Assembly (NCBI RefSeq): GCF_027595985.1
Contig: NC_073304.1
Location: forward strand, 47,161,137-47,225,136
DNA from: Sorex araneus
Lineage: Eukaryota; Chordata; Mammalia; Eulipotyphla; Soricidae
Direction: 5' to 3'
Length of the DNA stretch: 64,000 bases
Made by a program: the position numbers and the translations under genes. The notes beneath the pieces are model-generated. The model was not told the DNA's origin, did no database searches, and worked only from the letters and a program-made list of their open reading frames with translations. This document shows positions 18,126 to 58,605 of this stretch, piece after piece. Numbering within the stretch: position 1 is the stretch's first letter; each line of letters opens with the position of its first letter.

Positions 18126-18302
18126 GGGGCTGGAGCGACAGCACAGCGGGTAGGGCATTTGCCTTGCACGCGGCCTACCCGGGTTCGATTCCCAGCATCC
18201 CATATGGTCCCTGAGCACCGCCAGGGGTAATTCCTGAGTGCAGAGCCAGGAGTAACCCCTGTGCATCGCCAGGTGTGACCCAAAAAGCAAAAAAAAAAAA
18301 AA
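18126..18302 (+). mobile_element. SINE-1, young
   Basis: Near-consensus copy with a 14-A tail, 15 bp upstream of a SINE-2 copy. Confidence 0.93.
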
Positions 18303-18316
18303 TTATTTACATATCT

Positions 18317-18572
18317 CGCTGGAGTGATAGCACAGCGGTTGGGCTTTCGCCTTTCACACGGCCGACCTGAGTTCGATTCCTCTGCCCCTCTCGGAGAGCC
18401 CAGCAAGCTACCTAGAGTATCGAGCCCTCCCGGCAGAGTCTGGCAAGATACCCGTGCATACTGGATATGCCAAAAATACTAACAATAGGTCTCTCAATGA
18501 GAGACGTTACTGGTACCCACTCGAACAAATCGATGAGCAACGATGAGCAACGGGATGACAGTGACAGAGTGA
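18317..18572 (+). mobile_element. SINE-2 (tRNA head, RTE 3' tail)
   Basis: Head with A box TAGCACAGCGG and B box AGTTCGATTCC, then the SINE-2 body (CTCTCGGAGAGCCCAGCAAG) and the RTE tail. GATGAGCAAC is duplicated within the tail. It directly follows a SINE-1 copy. Confidence 0.85.
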
Positions 18573-19534: not shown

Positions 19535-20095
19535 TTAGTTTAAAAAATTTAAAAAAAATTAATTAAAGAGTCATGATCTACGGAGTTATTGACAGATGAG
19601 TTTTAAGAATACAATACTCCAGGGGCCGGAGCAATAGCACAGCGGGTAGGGCGTTTGCCTTGCACGCGGCCGACCCAGGTTCGATCCCCGGCATCCCATA
19701 TGGTCCCCCAAGCACTGCCAGGAGTAATTCCTGAGTGCAAAGCCAGGAGTAACCCCTGAGCATCGCTGGGTGTGACCCAAAAAGCAAAAAAAAAAAAAAA
19801 AAAAAAAAAGAATACAATACTCCAATACCAATCCCACCACCAGTGTCAACTTCCCTCCTTCAGTATTCCCATACTTCCTCTTTCTCCTTCCCCATCGGCC
19901 ACCTTGGTAAGCATATTTCTAAGTTCAGTGGTTGTAGTTTAGGTAACATGTTTTCAGTTTTGTTGAGCCCGTGCTTTGGATATATAGCTGCATCAGTCTC
20001 CTACATCATTAGTATACCTGAGGCCCTGACAGCTTTCATCCATTACTTCCATTTCTCATTTTCTTCCTCACCCCCTCAAAGGCAATTAAAAAAAA
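19535..20095 (-). mobile_element. L1-tail retroposon, antisense
   Basis: A T/A-rich start followed by ACGGAGTTATTGACAGATGA and CAATCCCACCACCAGTGTCA, the tail of another shrew L1 type. A SINE-1 is inserted near its 3' end. Confidence 0.65.
19622..19807 (+). mobile_element. SINE-1, young
   Basis: 17-bp exact duplication AAGAATACAATACTCCA (19605 and 19808); long pure A tail. Confidence 0.95.
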
Positions 20096-20482: not shown

Positions 20483-20726
20483 GGGTTGGAGCGATAGCCC
20501 AGCGGGTAGGGCATTTGCCTTGCAAGCAGCTGACCCGGGTTTGATTCCTCCACCCCTCTCGTAGAGCCCAGCAAGCTACCAAGAGTATCTTGCCCACACA
20601 GCAGAGCCTGGCAAGCTTCCCGTGGCCCATTCAATATGCCCAAAACAGTAACAAGTCTCACAATGGAGGCGTTACTGGTGCCCGCCCAAGAAAATCGATG
20701 AGCAACGAGATGACAGTGATACAGTG
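20483..20726 (+). mobile_element. SINE-2 (tRNA head, RTE 3' tail)
   Basis: Full-length copy with 12-bp flanking duplication AAGATATTTTAT / AAGATCTTTTAT (20471 and 20727). It ends AAAATCGATGAGCAACGAGA then TGACAGTGATACAGTG. It sits 177 bp from an RTE fragment with the same tail. Confidence 0.9.
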
Positions 20727-20903
20727 AAGATCTTTTATAGTCCCTAACTTAACACTATGGTATCAAGGGAAAAATATAGAAAAAAAAGAAACAAAACAGA
20801 TGAGCATATAGGTGGAGGAGAGTGGACCAGACAGATATTTTGACGTAGAGAATGGATAAGAGAATTTGGCAGTGGATTAAATTTCTTTTTTCTTAATATA
20901 GTA

Positions 20904-21164
20904 AGGCTCCTTGGAGATGACTGCTGGACTAGAACCATTACCAACTGGATTCCACGGGATGTCAAAAGAACGCCTGGCTGCCCACCTACGAGATGGTCAG
21001 ACTTCTTTGTCAAGACCCTGAATGAATGGTTTGATGCTCTTCATGTTTCTGGAGCGAGCAGACACCACTGGGCTATACTAGCACTCGATAGGGATGAATG
21101 GCGACGTTACTGGCCCCTGCTAGTATAAATCGACAAGCAACAGGATGACAAGTGATACAAGTGA
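20904..21164 (+). mobile_element. RTE-clade LINE 3' fragment with TSD
   Basis: A 261-bp 5'-truncated copy of the same RTE. It reads the [20 protein letters not shown] end of the ORF and finishes in the ATCGACAAGCAACAGGATGA / AGTGATACAAGTGA tail. A 10-bp exact target duplication TAATATAGTA flanks it (20894-20903 and 21165-21174). Confidence 0.88.
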
Positions 21165-21231
21165 TAATATAGTAGAGCTAAGGTCATATTATGGGAAAGA
21201 ATGTTATATTTTGTACTTGTAATATGAAAAA

Positions 21232-26781: not shown

Positions 26782-27411
26782 AAGCCTGGCTGTCTTCACC
26801 GGGGCCCGTTGGAGCGGGGTGGGTTGAGTTTCCCTCCCCTCCCTGAGCAGAGCTCTGGCAGTCGAAGACCAGCCACAGCCATGCTCAAGACCCCTCTCCA
26901 CTTGTTCAAATGAGCCTCATGTATGAAGGAACCAGCAGAGGAACCCAGGTGTGCGGGACCCAGGGCTGGGATCTCCAAGCCTGCTCAGATCAGGACTGGG
27001 CCTCCTCCACCCAGATCCCCCATTTCCCAGTAGGTTGGTAGCCCACCACCATGCTGTGTAATCTTATCAATGGCCAACATCCAGAGACTATAAAACCAAA
27101 CTCCTGTAAGTACATGGGTGTGACATCTTATAGCCTAGTTCTCCTCGGAGAACCTGTTAAGCTACTGAAAGTTTCCTGCTTACACGGGAGAGCCTGGTGA
27201 GCTCCCCATGGTGTATTCATATGCCAAAACCAGTTACAATGATGGTTCTCATTCCCTGACCCTGAAAGAGCTTCTAATGCGGCATTGTTGGGAAGGATGA
27301 GTAAAAAGAGGCTGCTAAAATCTCAGGGATAGGACAAATGGAGATGTTACTGGGCCCGCTCAAGCAAACCGATGATCAAAAGGATGACAGTGACAGTGAT
27401 ACAGTGATTTA
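26782..27411 (+). mobile_element. Long RTE-tailed non-autonomous element
   Basis: About 630 bp. The 5' two-thirds (26806-27130) have no tRNA head and share blocks with 39660-39990 (GAGCGGGGTGGGT, GAGCCTCATG, ACATCCAGAGACT). 27142-27240 matches the body of SINE-2. An extra internal block follows, then the RTE tail (CCGCTCAAGCAAACCGATGA and GACAGTGACAGTGATACAGTGA). No ORF. It may be a longer ancestor or relative of SINE-2. Confidence 0.6.
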
Positions 27412-28058: not shown

Positions 28059-28139
28059 TTTCTTCTATAGTAGTTTTATCTTAGGGTAATTCCAAATTGC
28101 AAAAGCTTACAAAATTTTCTTCTTACTGAGGAAATATTT

Positions 28140-29081
28140 CAGTGAAATATTTCACTGAAACTCTTCAGTGCCAGCCTTGAGAACATCATGCGACGACTGG
28201 AATGGGAAGGAATGGAAGTGAAGAGAGATGGTCGGCAATCACACCATCTCTGCTTTGCTGATGACATCGTTCTAATAACACCAAACATTAGCCAAGTGGC
28301 ACAAATGCTGGTCGACTTCAACTGAGAGTGTGGAAAGGCCAGACTGCAGCTGAATTTCAGCAAAGCAATGTTCATGAAAAACAAACTAGTCCCTGACGTT
28401 CCATTTGTTCTCAACGGAACGAACATCTCTGAATGCAGCAGCTATGTGTACCTGGGTTGAGAACTCAACGTGAAGAATGACTTGGCGTCAGAACTGCGCT
28501 GGAGGAAGAGAGCAGCAGGGAAGGTCTCCAAGAGTGTTGAAGAAGTGGTTAACAGGACAAAGAACCTCTGGCTCTGGGCATATCTTTTTGACTCCACCAT
28601 TCTTCCTGCACTAACATATGCCTCAGAGACCTGGGCCCTATGAAAACAGGATGAGAACACTATTCGGGTATCCCAAAGAGGAATGAAAAGAGCTATGCAT
28701 GGAGTGTCACATTTCACTCAAGTGAGAGAAGGAATTTGGAGTTCTGACCTCAGTCGCAAGTCAAGAATCAGGGATGCTGTCTCATTTGCCAAGGCGTTGA
28801 AAATCAGATGGGCCGAACATGTAATGCAATCAGAGATGACCGCTGAACTAGAGCTATTATCGACTGGATTCCATGGGACGTCAAAAGACCACGTGGATGC
28901 CCACCAATGAGATGGTCAAACTTCTTCGTCAAAACCTTGAATGAACCATTTGAGGCGCTTCCTGTTCCTGGAGTGAACAGATATCATTGGGCTACACTAG
29001 CATGTGACAGGGACAAATGGAGATGTTACCGGCACCCGCTCGAGCAAATCGAAGATCAATGGGATGACAAGTGATACAAGT
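28140..29081 (+). mobile_element. RTE-clade LINE, 5'-truncated (RTE1_Sar-like)
   Basis: Carries the 3' part of an endonuclease-reverse transcriptase ORF followed by a short 3' tail. In one frame it reads HHLCFADDIVLITPNIS (RT catalytic FADD box), then LNFSKAMFMKN, NGTNISECSSYVYLG and TILPALTYASETW. After a frameshift near 28850 it reads [27 protein letters not shown], ending about 29075. Three in-frame stops and the frameshift make it dead. It ends in CAAATCGAAGATCAATGGG and a GACAAGTGATACAAGTGA tail rather than poly(A), typical of RTE elements. Near-perfect flanking repeats (GAGGAAATATTT at 28128 / GAGGGAATATTT at 29082) mark a real insertion. The protein motifs match RTE proteins of strongylid nematodes as I remember them; RTE1_Sar of common shrew was reported as horizontally transferred. 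Confidence 0.88.
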
Positions 29082-29571
29082 GAGGGAATATTTAATTCCT
29101 GAAAAATTTAGTGACTTATAGTTGAAGACAATACTTTTAGCTTTATAAAGGGTAAAGGTACCTGATTGTCAACAAAACAACACAAAACAAAGGTATTAGA
29201 GCCTGTGATACAGCACATGTTTTTCATATATGAGCACCTGGGGTCAAGTTCTAGCATATTTGCATGTTCATGCACACACACAAACACACACAAACCCAGA
29301 GGTATAAAACTGTATACCTGAAATTTTGTAGAATCAGAAGCAAGGTAAATCAGTATAATTTGTTTTGCATGAAAAATGAAAATGAAGACATATAATTTCT
29401 TCGAGGTCATTATATTTTACTAAACAGAGAATTTGATTTCTGGATATATTTTTTGGGGGCCTGTTCTGTAAGTCTTGGACAACTAATCACTAGTTGCCAC
29501 GACATACAGTTGATATTATTATCAATAAAATAGTACTTATCACCTTAAAAATTAGGGAACTAGGGACTGGA

Positions 29572-31823: not shown

Positions 31824-32055
31824 CACTGTATTACTGTCATCCCGTTGCTCATTGATTTGCTCGAGCGGGCACCAGTAACATTTCCATTGTGAGATTTGTT
31901 ATTTTTTTTTGGCATATCTAATACATCACAGGGAGCTTGCCAGGCTCTGCCTGTGTGGGTGAGATACACTTGGTAGCTTGCCAGACTCTCCGAGAGGGGC
32001 AGAGGAATGAACCCAGGTCAGCCGCATGCAAGGCAAATGCCCTATCCGCTGTGAG
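31824..32055 (-). mobile_element. SINE-2, inverted
   Basis: Reverse-complement copy beginning with the RTE tail (CACTGTATTACTGTCATCCC) and ending in the tRNA-like head. Exact 10-bp duplication AACTAATTTT at 31814 and 32056. Confidence 0.9.
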
Positions 32056-33073
32056 AACTAATTTTAATAATAAGTATTTATTCTAAATGTTTACCCTATT
32101 TATTTAAACATTTATGGTTATTTATATCCTAAATTAAGTTTCGATTAGTTTTAAAATTATATATGTAACTTTTAAAAATTGGCATCCATATCTCAGTGAC
32201 AGAATTCAGATATTATATCTCAGAGGCATACAATAAAAATGTTTTTAAAGAAAAAAATCTCAACTCCATAATTATTAGTGTCAGGCTATTAGAACTAATG
32301 GTGTCTTTGGATATCAGTGATATTAACCACTCTACAAATTTGAACTGAGCCAGGAAAGTATTGTTTTGTTAAATCAATTAGTCTTATAGGACAGAATTTG
32401 AACTAGAAGTTGGATTCCTATATTTCCAATTCAGATATAGTCATCAAACTTTATTACCTTAAACAGATGATTTAAAACTGTTAAGAGGATTACACTTAAG
32501 TCTTAAAGAGTTGGACTTTATTTAAAGCAAATTAAATAAATTGCATTTTTCTAAGTCAGAGATTTGGATTTTATTTATGGAGATAAAGACAACTCCTCTA
32601 AACTCTTTGACTTTACTACTGATTTGCTCAGCCATCTGAATTATTTAGCACTAATAACACCATGTAATTATTATGAGTGTAGAAGAAGATGTAAAGTTCC
32701 CTTCAAAATAAATGCTGACATAAAACAATATATGATATAGTAGAGGATGGGAGATACTGATAGTATATCATGTGATATTTGGTACTTTTATATACGTCAA
32801 TTATAAAGATAACATATTGATTTGTTTTACTTCTTTGAGATAATATAGGAGGAGCAGCACAGAGAGAAAACAGAAATTAGTAGCTCGTGAATTTTGTTTA
32901 ACCCTAAAACAGTTTGAATAAATTAGTCTATATAATTTAAAAAAAATAACGCTTTAATACCCTGTCATTATTATGAAAGTGGAATATATATCAAAGTCTA
33001 AGTTTCTAATTTCTCTTAAAAAAGTCAGATGACTTGGCCATGTCACCTCCCAGTTAAAACTAAATATGTCTGT

Positions 33074-39612: not shown

Positions 39613-40490
39613 TGGTGAAGAGATGCCTCTAGACCCTGTACCAGGCTGAGTCTCATATCTGGGGCACTCCGGAGTGGGGTGGGTGAGCCCACTACCTGCC
39701 CAAACAGAGCCCCAGCAACTGAAAACTCCACACTCCAATTGCCATCATGCTCATGGCCAGGCTCTACAGGCTAGGACGAGCCTCATCAGGAATGGATCTG
39801 TTGAGAAACTCAGGTATGGAGGTTTTGTGATGAAATCTTTAGGCTCTAATGGAGTCAGGGGTCAGGGATGGGCTACCTCACCCACTCCCCTGTTCTTCCA
39901 GGAACCTGGCAATCACAGCTATGAACTGCCTCTGAATTGCCATATAAGCTCATTAACCAGACATGATCCAGAGACTCATAAATAAATCTCACAATAGATC
40001 AAAAAGTTACAGAGATGCTTCTGTACCCCTCAAATTTAACTCCATTCTGTATCACCCCATTCAAAGTTTTTGAATTTTTGCAGTGACACCTCAAACTCTA
40101 TTATCACTGATAAACCAGGAGTAGTACACAATATTAGATGGGATGTAAAGTAGAAGGCAACCATCTAGATTAACAAAATATAAACATGCAAGGCTTAACC
40201 TGTAACAACATGTTAATAATCTCTTATACAAGGGCTTAATGACTCCAGGGTGAGATACAATAATCTTTACACACTTTCCTCTAAGGAAATGTTTTTTGAT
40301 CATTTTTAGCGAATTATTCATAACAAGCATTATAAAATTATTTAGGACATGCTCTTGGGGCAGGCTTGGGTGGTGATTAGGAAAACTGGAAATAATGGTG
40401 GTGGGACGGTGTAATGGTAGTGGGATTGGTGCTGGAATATTGAATATAACAAATAAAATCATCAAAAACAACTTTAAAAAATAAAGCAAT
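39613..40490 (+). mobile_element. Unclassified retroposon related to 26782-27130
   Basis: 5' part shares blocks with the composite element at 26.8 kb (GGAGTGGGGTGGGT, GAGCCTCATCAGGA, TGATCCAGAGACT). 3' part ends in an L1-like tail (GGTGGTGGGACGGTGTAATG ... AACAAATAAAATCATC). Fragments may be unrelated insertions side by side. Confidence 0.45.
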
Positions 40491-43890: not shown

Positions 43891-44078
43891 TGTAAAATTC
43901 TTCTTACTGTGGCATCTGATATAATGTTGCTTCCATTTATTTTATTTTTCTTCTTAGTCAAGAGTTGGCGGAATTCATCTTTGCTCCCCCTCCAAAACAT
44001 CCCAAAAACCTTAGCTTCATTTCATCAACTCTTAAAGTTTTCCTATCATTTTCTATTTTATTTTTTTAATGTATGGTA

Positions 44079-44317
44079 GCACTGTCATCCCATTGTTCAT
44101 CAATTTGCTCAAGCGGGCACCAGTAACATCTCCATTGTGAAACTTATTGTTACTGTTCTGGGCATATCGAATATGCCACGGGGAGCTTTCCAGGCTCTGC
44201 TGTGTGGGTGGGATACTCTTGGTAGCTTGCTGGGCTCTCCGAGAGGGATAGAGGAATCTAACTTGGGTCGGCCATGTGCAAGGCAAACACCCTACCCGCT
44301 GTGCTATTGCTCCAGTG
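44079..44317 (-). mobile_element. SINE-2, inverted
   Basis: RTE tail at left (CACTGTCATCCCATTGTTCA), SINE-2 body, then head with the B box complement. Inserted in an ancient antisense L1. ATTTTTTAA-type flanks suggest a short target duplication. Confidence 0.87.
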
Positions 44318-44429
44318 CATTTTTTAAGTGCACCTACATTTATTTTATTCTTTTAAATATTCTGTATTTTAAATGTTTATAATCTTCCCTTTCCTTTTCC
44401 TCCTTCACTTCTTGTTGATACAGTGATGG

Positions 44430-46274: not shown

Positions 46275-46513
46275 GGACTGGAGTGATAGCTCAGCGGGTA
46301 GTGTTTGCCTTGCATGCGGCTGACCCAGGTTTGATTCTTCCATCCCTCTCAGAGAGCCCGGCAAGCTACAAAGAGTATCCCGCCCACACGGCAGAGTCTG
46401 GCAAGCTCCCCGTGGCATATTCGATATGCCAAAAACAGTAACAACAAGTCTCACAATGGAGATGTTACTGGTGTCCACTCGAGCAGATTGATGAACAAGG
46501 GGATGACAGTGCT
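46275..46513 (+). mobile_element. SINE-2 (tRNA head, RTE 3' tail)
   Basis: Near full-length copy with flanking duplication ACTGACACTG / ACTGACATTG (46265 and 46514). Includes the diagnostic SINE-2 body and GCCAAAAACAGTAACAACAA before the tail. Confidence 0.9.
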
Positions 46514-48186: not shown

Positions 48187-48250
48187 TTCACAATGGAGAC
48201 ATTACTAGTGCCCGCTCGAGTAAATCGATGAGTACGAGATGACAGTGGTC
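48187..48250 (+). mobile_element. SINE-2/RTE 3' tail fragment
   Basis: Only the last 64 bp survive: CCGCTCGAGTAAATCGATGA and ACGAGATGACAGTGG. It could derive from SINE-2 or the LINE; the preceding TTCACAATGGAGACAT favours SINE-2. Confidence 0.75.
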
Positions 48251-48285
48251 ATTTATTCTTAATTCTTCTTCTTCTTCTTATTTAC

Positions 48286-48447
48286 TTTTTTGGGTCACAC
48301 CAGGTGATGCTCAGGGGTTACTCCTGGCTCTGCACTCGAATTACTCTTGGCAGTGCTTGGGGGACCATATGGGATGCCAGGGATCGAACCCAGGTTGGCC
48401 GCATGCAAGGATAACACCCTATCCAGTGTACTTCAGCTTAGGCCCTC
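48286..48447 (-). mobile_element. SINE-1, inverted
   Basis: TTTTTGGGTCACACCAGGTG, GGGATCGAACCCAGGTTGG. Confidence 0.9.
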
Positions 48448-48977: not shown

Positions 48978-49102
48978 CTGGCCTGGCAAGGTACCCGTGG
49001 CATATTCGACATGTCAAAAATAGTAACAGCAAGTCTCACAATGAGACATTACTGGTGCCCGCTTGAGCAAATCAATGAACAACGAGACATCAGTGCTACA
49101 GA
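48978..49102 (+). mobile_element. SINE-2 3' half
   Basis: 5'-truncated copy starting in the body (GGCATATTCGACATGTC) and running through GCTTGAGCAAATCAATGAAC to the tail. Confidence 0.8.
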
Positions 49103-49106
49103 GCTT

Positions 49107-49259
49107 CTTTTGGGGGGTCACAGGTGATACTCAGGGCTTACTCCTGGCTCTGCACTCAGGGATCACGCCTGGCAGTGATGCTGGGCATCAAACCCAGGTC
49201 AGCTGCATGCAAGTCAATGCAATGCAGTACCCTATAACTGTACTATGTCTCTGGTCCCA
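49107..49259 (-). mobile_element. SINE-1, inverted, shortened
   Basis: GGCATCAAACCCAGGTCAGC; a small deletion removes the CATATGGGATG block. Confidence 0.85.
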
Positions 49260-55854: not shown

Positions 55855-58605
55855 ACTTATTTTTTAGAAAAATTTTTATTAGTGAATCACAGTGAGGTAC
55901 AGTTACAGACTTACAACTTTTCGTGCTTGTGTTTCAGTCATACAATGCTCGAGTACCCATCCTTCCATCAGTGCACATCCTCTACCACCAATGATCCCAG
56001 TATCCCTCTCACCCCTCCACCCCATCCCCCCCGACCCAACCTGACCTCTGTGGCAGGGCATTCCCTTTTGTTCTGTCTCCCCTTTTGGGTGTTGTGGTTT
56101 GCAACAGAGGTATTGAGCAGCCACCTTGTTTGATCTGTAGTCTGCATTCAGCGTGCATCTCCCTTCCCAAGCGGGTCTTTTAACCACACTTTACTTGGTG
56201 TTCCCTTCTCTATCTGAGCTGCTTTTCCTCCAGCATGTAACGCCAGCTTCCAAGCTGTGGAACCAACCTCCTGGTACTAATCTCTACTATTCTACTAATC
56301 CTATTCTATTACTTTATATTCCATAGAGGAGTGCAATCTTTCTATGTCTGTCTCTCTCTTTTTGACTCATTTCATTTAGCATGATACTTTCCATATTGAT
56401 CCACTTATATGCAAGGGTCATGACTTCATCTTTTCTAACAGCTGTATAGTATTCCACTGTGTAGATGTACCAAAGTTTCTTTAACCACTCATCTGTTCTC
56501 GGCATTTGGGTTTTTTCCAGATTCTGACTATTGTAAACAGTGCTGCAATGAACGTTCGAGTGCAGATGTCATTTCGACTATATTTTTTTGCCTCTCCGGG
56601 ATATATTCCCAGGAGTGGTATTGCTGGGTCAAATGGGAGCTCAATTTCTAATTTTTTAGAAGCCTCCATACTGTTTTCTAAAAGGGCTGAACCAGTTGGC
56701 ATCCCCACCAGCACTGTAGGAGAGTCCCTTTCTCCCCACATCCACACCAACAGCAGTTTCTTTTGTTCTTTTTGATGTGTGCCAGTCTCTGTTGTGTGAT
56801 GTGATATCTCGTAGTTGTTTTGATCTGCATCTTTCTGATGATTAGTGGTGAAGAGCATTTTTTCCCTTTTTTTAAAAAAAAATTAGATCACTGTGAGATA
56901 GTTACAAGCTTTCATGTTTGGGTTACAATCACACAATGATCAAACACCCATCCCTCCACCAGTGCATATTCCCCACCACCAATATCCCCGGTATATACCC
57001 CCCTTTCCTTTTCCTACCCTCCCCCTGCCTTCATGGCAGACAATATTCCTCATACTCTTTCTCTACTTTTGGGCATTATGGCTTGCAACATAGACATTGA
57101 GAGGTCATCATGTTTGATCCATTATCTACTTTTGGCACTCACCTCTCATCCCGATTGATTTCTCCAGCCATCATTTTCTGAGTGATACCTTCTCTATTCC
57201 ATCTGCCTTCTCCCCTCCACTCCAGAAGCAGGCTTCCAGCTATGGGGCAATCCTCCTGGCCCTTGTATCTACTGTCCTTGGGTGTCAGCCTCATGTGATG
57301 TTATTCTGTACTCCACAAATGAGTACAATCCCTCTATGTCTGTCCCTCTCTGTCTATCCATTTATAAGCAAATTTCATGACTTCAGCTCTCCGAACAGCT
57401 GTGTAGTATTCCATTGTATAGATGTACCAAAGTTTCTTTCACCAGTTATCTGTTCTAGGGCACTTGGGTTGTTTCCAGATTTTGGCTATTGTGAGCAGTG
57501 CTGCAATGAATATATAGGTACAGATGTCATTTCTACTGTGCTTTTTTGCATCCTTGGGATATTTATCCAGAAGTGGTATTGTGGGGTCATATGGAAGCTC
57601 AATTTCTAGTTTATGAAGGACTGTCCATATTGTTTTCCAGAATGGCTGGACCAGTCAGCATTCCCACCAACACTGAAAGAGCATCTCTTTTTTCCCACAT
57701 CCACACCAGCACTGGTTGTTTTTGTTCTTTTGAATGTGTGCCAGTCTCTGTGGTGTGAGATGATATCTCATTGTTGTTTTGATTTGCATCTCCCTGATGA
57801 CTAGTGATGTGGAGCATTTTTTCATGTGCCTTTTGGCCATTTGTATTTCTTTTTTGAGGAAACTTCTGTTCATTTCTTCTCCCCATTTTTTGACGGGGTT
57901 GGAGTTTTTTTCCTTATACAATTCTATTAGTGTCTTGTACATCCTGGATATTAATCCTTTATCAGATGGCTATTGGATAAATATTCTTTCCCATTCTATG
58001 GGCTCTTTCTGTATTTTGGTCACTGTTTCTTTTGAAGTGCAAAAGCTTCTTACTTTGATGTAGTCCCATTTGTTTATGTTTGCTTCCACTTGCATGGTCA
58101 GTGCTGTTTCATCCTTAAAGATGTGAAGAGCATTTTTTCATGTGCCTTTTGGCCATTCATATTTCTTCCTTGAGAAAGTGTCTGTTCATTTCATCGACCC
58201 ATATTTTGATGGGGTTGGATGTTTTCTTCTTGCTGATCCAACCAGTGCCTTGTATATCCTTGATATGAACCCCTTATCAGATGGGTAGTGTGTGAATATT
58301 CTTTCCCATTCTGTAGATTGTCTTTGTATTTTGGTCACTGTTTCTTTTGCGGTACAAAAGCTTCTTAGTTAAATATAGTCCCATTTGTTTATCTCTGTTT
58401 CCACTTGGTTGATCAGTTCTGTGTCATCTTTGAAGATACCTTTAGCCTCAATATTGTGGAGGGTTTTGCTGACCTTGTCTTCAATGTACCTTATGGATTC
58501 TGGTCTGATGTTGAAGTCTTTAATCCATTTTTATCTGACTTTTGTGAATGGTGTTAGGTCAAGGTCTAAGCCCATTTTATTGCATATGGTTGTCCAGAGG
58601 GTTGT
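55855..58605 (-). mobile_element. L1 copy A, split by L1 copy B
   Basis: 55855-56864 holds the antisense 3' UTR and ORF2 C-terminus; 58123-58605 continues the same ORF2 inward (TTGATGGGGTTGGATGTTT ... TTAATCCATTTTTATCTGAC). The two parts are separated by a younger L1 with a 17-bp target duplication. ORF2 is broken by stops. Confidence 0.9.
56865..58122 (-). mobile_element. L1 copy B nested in L1 copy A
   Basis: A 5'-truncated, 1,258-bp antisense L1 (3' UTR from about 56880, ORF2 C-terminus from about 57330 on). Exact 17-bp duplication GTGAAGAGCATTTTTTC at 56848-56864 and 58123-58139. Its 3' UTR differs from copy A and resembles the 14-16 kb copy, so it is another subfamily. Confidence 0.93.

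What the first reader, a model, noticed from the sequence alone, without database searches (positions are those of the whole stretch)
20483..21174. A SINE that ends in the same tail as the RTE LINE: autonomous/non-autonomous pair
Seen: within 450 bp lie a full SINE-2 and a truncated RTE, both ending in the pattern CGCTCGAGCAAATCGATGAGC then GATGACA and a GTGATACA(A/G)TGA repeat. At least five further SINE-2 copies or fragments (18317, 31824, 44079, 46275, 48978) share it. Inference: SINE-2 borrows the RTE reverse transcriptase by tail recognition, as Bov-tA does with BovB. If the LINE came from a nematode, an endogenous tRNA head captured a foreign tail and amplified on it.
Basis: partly seen in the sequence, partly recalled or inferred. 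Interest (0 to 1): 0.88.

Follow-up and report, generated by a model that had tools for sequence, protein, structure and literature searches.

The report
Shrew SINE built from nematode-type LINE
A short parasitic repeat in this shrew-like DNA is a hybrid: its front end comes from an older local repeat, and the rest consists of two pieces of a larger jumping element of the kind found in parasitic worms, whose copying enzyme it most likely borrows.

Summary
SINE-2 and the RTE share a 66-base 3' end (59/66 and 55/66 identical with the two RTE copies; 0 of 500 shuffles as good). Ten elements carry it: 7 SINE-2, 2 RTE, 1 intermediate.

The shared tail is the end of the RTE reading frame, conserved in strongylid nematode proteins, so sequence went from LINE to SINE. 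SINE-2 carries more than a tail: its middle body most likely comes from the leader upstream of the RTE reading frame. An intermediate at 27140-27407 joins that body and a clear RTE leader to the RTE 3' end. The head is that of the resident A-tailed SINE (63 of 66 bases), not a fresh tRNA gene. This is the design known from bird SINEs carried by AviRTE. The window RTE groups with Sorex fumeus RTE (100/99), then with Nippostrongylus and Heligmosomoides.

Mobilisation by the RTE enzyme is inferred. Target sites did not separate RTE from L1. Transfer direction, and SINE-2 in other shrews, could not be tested; the genome search did not complete.

The parts
20483..20548 (+). SINE-2 head with pol III A and B boxes; same as the head of the resident A-tailed SINE-1
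   Evidence: ARAGORN calls a tRNA-like fold at 20487-20558; consensus heads identical at 63 of 66 bases; A box at consensus 13-24, B box at 56-66 with one mismatch
20549..20660 (+). SINE-2 middle body, most likely derived from the RTE leader upstream of the reading frame
   Evidence: the same segment lies next to RTE leader in 27140-27407; frame-tolerant match of the SINE-2 body consensus to leaders in proteins P0124 (Angiostrongylus costaricensis), P0170 (Necator americanus) and P0151 (source unnamed)
20661..20727 (+). SINE-2 tail = end of the RTE reading frame plus terminal repeat
   Evidence: consensus translates in the RTE frame as QWRRYWCPLEQIDEQRDDS against EWRRYWRPLEQIDDQRDDR of Nippostrongylus P0003
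20471..20482 (+). 5' target-site duplication of this SINE-2 copy (3' copy at 20727-20738, 11 of 12 bases)
   Evidence: p 0.024 against 2000 random placements
20909..21165 (+). 5'-truncated RTE (C-terminal end of the reading frame and terminal repeat), flanked by duplications at 20895-20908 and 21166-21179 (12 of 14 bases)
   Evidence: p 0.014
28140..29083 (+). second 5'-truncated RTE with part of the reverse transcriptase (FADD motif) and the C-terminus; the stop codon lies in the first terminal repeat unit
   Evidence: (RVT_1 E 6.4e-6, below the curated cut-off)
27140..27407 (+). bipartite element B: SINE-2-like body, more RTE leader, then the RTE 3' end; no tRNA head; 5' limit approximate
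   Evidence: (tblastn of P0124 E 2e-9 and P0159 E 2e-8 on a 974-base subject)
46275..46512 (+). SINE-2 copy with head, variant with GTGCTAC
   Evidence: p 0.0515
44072..44318 (-). SINE-2 copy with head, variant with GTGCTAC
31824..32056 (-). SINE-2 copy, 5' end short, with 10-of-10 duplication AAAATTAGTT
   Evidence: p 0.0195
18315..18566 (+). SINE-2 copy, the most diverged of five; 10-bp internal duplication in the tail
48980..49103 (+). SINE-2 fragment (body and tail), variant with GTGCTAC
48188..48246 (+). SINE-2 fragment (tail only)
19623..19788 (+). example of SINE-1, the resident A-tailed SINE that shares the head; 17-of-17 duplication

Best explanation
SINE-2 is a composite non-autonomous retrotransposon made of three parts. 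Part 1 is the pol III promoter head of the resident A-tailed SINE (bases 1-66). Part 2 is about 110 bp of the leader that precedes the reading frame of a strongylid-nematode-type RTE. Part 3 is about the last 66 bases of that RTE: the end of its reading frame running into a short terminal repeat. Shown: the three-part anatomy, the coding nature of the tail, junctions common to the copies, and an element (27140-27407) with the same body, more RTE leader and no head. Supported but not fully shown: the leader origin of part 2. Inferred: an RTE first lost its middle and became a bipartite element whose repeat unit was one base shorter. A SINE-1 head was then joined to it, by template switching or recombination. 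The pol III transcript is copied in trans by the RTE protein, which primes on the shared terminal repeat. How the RTE came from, or went to, nematodes rests on published work and was not decided here.
For: Tail found in 10 elements and beyond 500 shuffles. Tail is RTE coding sequence in nematode and Sorex fumeus proteins. The segment SFPDPERASNAALLGRMSKKRLLKSQG in 27140-27407 matches the leader upstream of the endonuclease start in P0124 (A. costaricensis) and P0159 (unnamed source): tblastn E 2e-9 and 2e-8 on 974 bases, P0124 E 9e-6 on the whole window, frame-tolerant scores 123 against a null maximum of 54 and 88 against 50 in 60 base shuffles. SINE-2 body consensus against the leaders of P0151, P0170 and P0124: 1, 2 and 3 of 1000 DNA shuffles, 0, 2 and 4 of 1000 protein shuffles, and 0 of 94, 0 of 136 and 0 of 116 interior protein segments score as high. 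Head 63/66 with SINE-1, which ends in poly(A) instead. One A fewer in the repeat of 8 of 8 SINE-2 and element B against 2 of 2 RTE copies. Duplications at p 0.024 or less for SINE-2 20483 and 32056 and RTE 20909. Window RTE groups with S. fumeus RTE, 100/99.
Against: The body-leader match is weak for any single protein, the three leaders are related, and they are 3 of 7 leaders, chosen after the alignments. Of the other four, P0159 scores on the SINE-2 body within the null (28 of 60 shuffles reach it) and P0187, P0193 and P0169 had no null run; these four cover mainly the leader nearest the start codon. Against element B's own body, 23, 16 and 24 of 60 shuffles reach P0170, P0151 and P0159 (P0124: 0 of 60), and against all of B 8 and 14 of 60 reach P0170 and P0151. 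The tail fold is no better than shuffles (z -0.47, -0.07, -0.10, +0.98), with one compensated pair of 11. Target sites do not separate SINE-2/RTE from the L1-like SINE-1 (T|A 6 of 7 against 7 of 9; TT|AA 4 of 7 against 4 of 9; TTT upstream 3 of 7 against 1 of 9). 6 of 10 elements have duplications at p above 0.05 in the automatic test. SINE-2 and RTE repeat units differ by one base.
Confidence: 0.85

Rival explanations
1. SINE-2 is a simple head-plus-tail SINE: an endogenous head that captured only the RTE 3' tail, with a middle body of unrelated origin.
For: The tail match alone is very strong, while the body matches no stretch of the two window RTE copies (500 of 500 and 349 of 500 shuffles do as well). 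Those copies lack the 5' region, so this is a weak argument. Element B's body alone matches the leaders poorly.
Against: The body lies next to RTE leader in 27140-27407, and the SINE-2 body consensus matches three leaders at about 0 to 4 in 1000.
Confidence: 0.1
2. SINE-2 is mobilised by L1, like SINE-1; the RTE pieces are passengers.
For: Head shared with an L1-type A-tailed SINE; 4 of 7 SINE-2/RTE sites read TT|AA; copy 44318 is followed by an A-rich stretch.
Against: 6 of 7 SINE-2 copies have no A run beyond the repeat or duplication; the A-rich stretch after 44318 resembles its own 5' flank and is read as target sequence. Duplications of 20483 and 32056 start right after the RTE-type repeat.
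Confidence: 0.04
3. The bipartite module (leader plus 3' end) was formed in the nematode and entered the shrew lineage ready-made beside the autonomous RTE; only the head was added in the shrew.
For: The module exists without a head in 27140-27407; leaders and ends of shrew and nematode RTE are alike.
Against: A pattern for leader joined to C-terminus matched 0 of 193 fetched proteins, but proteins are a poor place to look; nematode DNA could not be searched.
Confidence: 0.08

Closest known systems
AviRTE-carried SINEs of birds (ManaSINE1, GymnSINE and others; PMC4844689, section 6 and passages read)
   Same: Promoter head followed by a bipartite tail of 5' leader and 3' end of an RTE shared with parasitic nematodes
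   Different: Birds and filarial nematodes; PMC6542046 counts AviRTE and RTE1_Sar as different RTEs; there the 3' UTR is used, whereas here the tail is mainly the end of the reading frame
Ped-2 of springhare (table in PMC3747384, passage read)
   Same: Head of a resident SINE (ID) on the tail of an RTE-clade LINE (BovB) in a mammal
   Different: BovB, rodent; the table passage names no 5' leader piece
RTE1-N1_LA, Bov-A2, MAR4 and RTESINE1 (same table passage)
   Same: Mammalian elements listed with the 5' end of an RTE as head and the RTE tail, like element B
   Different: Other RTE families; no tRNA-type head
Bov-tA / BovB (same table passage)
   Same: tRNA-headed mammalian SINE paired with an RTE-clade LINE
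   Different: Different LINE; listed head tRNA-Glu, whereas here the head is that of an existing SINE
Hagfish SINE1-1_EBu and SINE2-1_EBu with RTE-2_EBu / RTE-4_EBu (PMC7245038, passages read)
   Same: SINEs with bipartite RTE-derived sequence
   Different: Other RTE families; 7SL or other tRNA heads
RTE1_Sar (PMC6542046; abstract, sections 9-11 and passages read)
   Same: Shrew RTE shared with strongylid nematodes; nearest to Heligmosomoides and Nippostrongylus there as here
   Different: That paper treats the LINE; 'SINE' occurs 0 times in its main text. The Repbase sequence itself was not available for comparison
Sor, a shrew SINE (named in PMC11240701, passages read)
   Same: Probably the SINE-1 of this window, donor of the head
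   Different: Name assigned by inference; its sequence was not compared

Membership tests
SINE mobilised by an RTE-clade LINE (SINE/LINE pair) | Internal pol III promoter in a tRNA-like head | tested here: met
   ARAGORN call at 20487-20558; A and B boxes in the consensus, no TTTT; transcription itself not tested
SINE mobilised by an RTE-clade LINE (SINE/LINE pair) | 3' end shared with a LINE in the same genome | tested here: met
SINE mobilised by an RTE-clade LINE (SINE/LINE pair) | Insertions flanked by target-site duplications | tested here: met
   of 10 elements tested, 20483, 32056 and 20909 at p 0.024 or less, 28140 at 0.024 with a wide gapped match, 46275 at 0.0515; the other five above 0.07
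SINE mobilised by an RTE-clade LINE (SINE/LINE pair) | RTE-type target signature (T stretch about 10 bases upstream plus T|A, as in passages of PMC13295347) | tested here: inconclusive
   TTT upstream 3 of 7 and T|A 6 of 7, with duplication starts placed by hand; no clear difference from SINE-1
SINE mobilised by an RTE-clade LINE (SINE/LINE pair) | Copying in trans by the LINE protein | not testable with these tools
   needs a cell assay
Bipartite RTE-derived SINE (AviRTE / hagfish type) | Body from the 5' leader of the RTE | tested here: met
   by contiguity in 27140-27407 and by three leaders; shrew RTE leader DNA not available, and four other leaders gave no support
Bipartite RTE-derived SINE (AviRTE / hagfish type) | 3' part from the 3' end of the same RTE | tested here: met
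   'the same RTE' in the sense of the same clade
RTE1_Sar / strongylid RTE clade | Protein closest to Sorex and strongylid RTE | tested here: met
   tree flags the window row as a long branch
RTE1_Sar / strongylid RTE clade | Match to the Repbase RTE1_Sar consensus | not testable with these tools
   sequence not held
SINE-1 (Sor-like, A-tailed) | Same head | tested here: met
   63 of 66 bases
SINE-1 (Sor-like, A-tailed) | SINE-1 body and A-rich tail | tested here: not met
Bov-tA / BovB | Tail of BovB | not tested
   no BovB sequence was compared

The most novel reading that the evidence does not exclude
A bipartite RTE element formed in a strongylid nematode crossed into the shrew lineage beside its autonomous partner. 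A resident mammalian SINE then gave it a promoter, so that a chimera of mammal and nematode DNA became a multi-copy family of shrews.
Probability: 0.08. Interest if true: 0.78.

Novelty: new member of a known kind. Interest (0 to 1): 0.52.

Why it matters
If the RTE did enter from a nematode, as published for RTE1_Sar, then this SINE is a case of a mammalian SINE switching partner to a newly arrived LINE. It would repeat in a mammal what AviRTE did in birds, and suggest that such takeovers follow horizontal transfer by the same bipartite route. It also gives a testable clock: SINE-2 should not predate the RTE in any shrew. The one-base difference in the terminal repeat offers a marker for how exact tail recognition must be.

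Tried and rejected
Tail structure: folds of four tails are no better than shuffles, and the alignment fold has one compensated pair of 11; structural recognition was not claimed.

Target-site signature: does not separate the two SINE families at this sample size. Seven of 10 SINE-2/RTE/B elements and 9 SINE-1 copies were used, with the duplication start placed by hand; the other three elements had no usable duplication.

Element B as a 630-bp element: rejected, because 26785-27103 matches a separate repeat at 39645-39990. B is taken to begin near 27140; its duplication is not significant (p 0.47).

Leader search in proteins with a typed 67-residue query found nothing. The answer came instead from N-terminal extensions of proteins. 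Of seven such leaders, three were carried to the large control on the SINE-2 body.

Viral contigs: 0 matches to a 19-base tail pattern; 3 stretches matched a protein pattern but none was confirmed.

Tree: 6 of 29 chosen proteins were skipped by my cutting rule, leaving 23 plus the window copy at 28140 (the copy at 20909 was not included). It is unrooted and gives no direction, and the window row and the Heligmosomoides row are flagged as long branches of unsure place. One search holds one faulty pattern (its '2 of 193' line is not used).

Papers: no shrew SINE/RTE pair was seen in the listings (15 of 853 listed; 15 of 17; 1; 3; 15 of 26; 10; none), nor in the SINE/LINE table passage of PMC3747384. 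Kojima 2018 (PMC5786205) is not held, and Repbase and Dfam could not be searched, so an existing entry for this SINE cannot be excluded.

Full report
What is there. The window carries at least two tRNA-headed SINE families and an RTE-clade LINE. SINE-1 is about 160 bp, ends in poly(A) and is common (25 head matches were looked at, not all of them good copies). SINE-2 is about 245 bp. Seven SINE-2 copies or pieces were found: 18315-18566, 20483-20727, 31824-32056 (minus), 44072-44318 (minus), 46275-46512, 48980-49103 and 48188-48246; five of seven carry the head. RTE pieces lie at 20909-21165 and 28140-29083. A further element lies at 27140-27407. That the species is a shrew is inferred from the RTE (below).

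The shared tail is real. The SINE-2 consensus and the RTE copies align over 66 bases from AATGG to the terminal repeat: 59 of 66 identical with the copy at 28140, 55 of 66 with that at 20909, plus two 1-base gaps each. None of 500 dinucleotide shuffles scored as high. In the given interval neither element has it exactly. The terminal repeats differ by one base: CAAGT in 2 of 2 RTE copies, CAGT in 8 of 8 SINE-2 copies and element B. From the reading frames of the Haemonchus proteins P0063 and P0110 I infer a 9-base unit in nematodes as well; that DNA was not seen.

The tail is the end of the RTE gene. A search with the window RTE read in pieces returned 345 proteins, 120 listed. Among the listed rows that show an organism, two are Sorex fumeus and the rest are strongylid nematodes. 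Complete C-termini read like [22 protein letters not shown] (55 of 193 fetched proteins carry a pattern of this kind in their last 40 residues; many of the others are cut short or run on). SINE-2 translates in that frame as QWRRYWCPLEQIDEQRDDS. The RTE stop codon falls in the first repeat unit. The direction is therefore LINE to SINE.

The body is most likely RTE leader. A second search, with the Sorex fumeus protein P0054, gave 626 proteins, 120 listed. Seven listed rows are Sorex (six S. fumeus, one S. araneus); the other listed rows that show an organism are nematodes. A few proteins run upstream of the endonuclease start into translated leader: P0124 (Angiostrongylus costaricensis), P0170 (Necator), P0187 (Haemonchus), P0193 (Heligmosomoides), P0169 (S. 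fumeus), and P0151 and P0159, whose source is not named. Element 27140-27407 encodes SFPDPERASNAALLGRMSKKRLLKSQG, which matches the leaders of P0124 and P0159 (tblastn E 2e-9 and 2e-8 on 974 bases; P0124 E 9e-6 on the whole window; frame-tolerant scores 123 and 88 against null maxima of 54 and 50 in 60 shuffles). It then jumps to the RTE 3' end. It is thus a bipartite RTE. Its first part is related to the SINE-2 body (nhmmer E 2e-13; score 50 against at most 21 in 500 shuffles). The SINE-2 body consensus alone also aligns to the leaders of P0151, P0170 and P0124; all three align the stretch EPGKLPV...AKNSNNK, two ending at base 110 and one at base 116 of the body. 1, 2 and 3 of 1000 DNA shuffles, 0, 2 and 4 of 1000 protein shuffles and none of 94, 136 and 116 interior protein segments score as high.

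Against this: these are 3 of 7 leaders, chosen. P0159 on the SINE-2 body is within the null (28 of 60), and P0187, P0193 and P0169 were given no null; these four cover mainly the leader next to the start codon. Element B's own body is within the null for P0170, P0151 and P0159 (23, 16 and 24 of 60), and all of B is within it for P0170 and P0151 (8 and 14 of 60). The claim for the body rests on contiguity in B plus the consensus test.

The head is that of SINE-1. The two consensus heads agree at 63 of 66 bases up to the B box and then part company. [quoted passage not shown]

Insertion marks. Duplications flank SINE-2 20483 (11 of 12), SINE-2 32056 (10 of 10) and RTE 20909 (12 of 14), all at p 0.024 or less; SINE-2 46275 is borderline (10 of 11 bases, p 0.0515). 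RTE 28140 gave p 0.024 but by a wide gapped match; by eye 28130-28139 and 29084-29093 agree at 9 of 10 bases. The other five of ten elements gave p above 0.07. The target-site pattern does not separate RTE-type from L1-type.

Ages. SINE-2 mean pairwise K2P is 0.204 (non-CpG 0.150; five copies, the two fragments left out). The single RTE pair is 0.245 (0.185). Fourteen SINE-1 copies, picked for their match, range from 0.03 to 0.29 from their consensus. At 18127-18330 a little-diverged SINE-1 (0.032) sits in the flank of the most diverged SINE-2 (0.148), which fits SINE-1 having been active later.

Source of the LINE. The window RTE groups with two S. fumeus proteins at 100/99, and this group with Nippostrongylus and Heligmosomoides (97/97 for the seven rows; unrooted, 24 rows, with the window and Heligmosomoides rows flagged as long branches). 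This agrees with the published placement of RTE1_Sar (PMC6542046, sections 9-11 read), which infers horizontal transfer and reports the element in no mammal but S. araneus among those searched. Its presence in S. fumeus adds a second Sorex species. The main text of that paper does not contain the word SINE.

Comparison. AviRTE SINEs of birds have a promoter head and a bipartite tail from the 5' and 3' ends of an RTE shared with nematodes (PMC4844689, section 6 and passages). Hagfish SINEs are similar (PMC7245038, passages). Among mammals the table passage of PMC3747384 lists RTE-clade pairs for marsupials, springhare, ruminants, horse and afrotherians, none for shrews. Ped-2, with an ID head on a BovB tail, is the nearest, and RTE1-N1_LA or Bov-A2, listed with an RTE 5' end as head, resemble element B. 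I file this as a new member of that kind. Repbase, Dfam and Kojima 2018 could not be checked.

Mechanism. Most likely the pol III transcript of SINE-2 is taken by the RTE protein through the shared end and primed on the terminal repeat at the cut site. The anatomy is shown; the copying step is inferred. What part of the tail is recognised is open: predicted folds are no better than shuffles.

Noticed in passing
26785-27103 and 39645-39990: A GC-rich repeat of about 320 bp occurs twice (nhmmer E 2e-15), unidentified, in one case directly upstream of the bipartite RTE.
   Followed up: partly
44072-44318, 46275-46512, 48980-49103: Three of seven SINE-2 copies share TGAACA and GTGCTAC in the tail, which looks like a subfamily.
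   Followed up: partly
18127-18330: A little-diverged SINE-1 abuts the most diverged SINE-2 and, by eye, seems inserted in its flanking duplication, which would order the two events.
   Followed up: partly
48188-48444 and 48980-49252: Two SINE-2 fragments each lie tail to tail with an inverted SINE-1.
   Followed up: no
57812-58437: A 315-bp unit is repeated twice in tandem at 81%; it reminded me of L1 sequence, by recall only.
   Followed up: no
proteins P0127, P0132, P0143, P0169 and P0084: Sorex fumeus gene models named craniofacial development protein 2-like align with RTE endonuclease sequence; likewise P0084, a Haemonchus RTE-like protein, bears the name of a disease resistance protein.
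   Followed up: no
proteins P0054, P0059 (S. fumeus) and P0121 (Haemonchus): RTE reading frames in which the endonuclease part is joined to the C-terminal part with the reverse transcriptase core missing.
   Followed up: no
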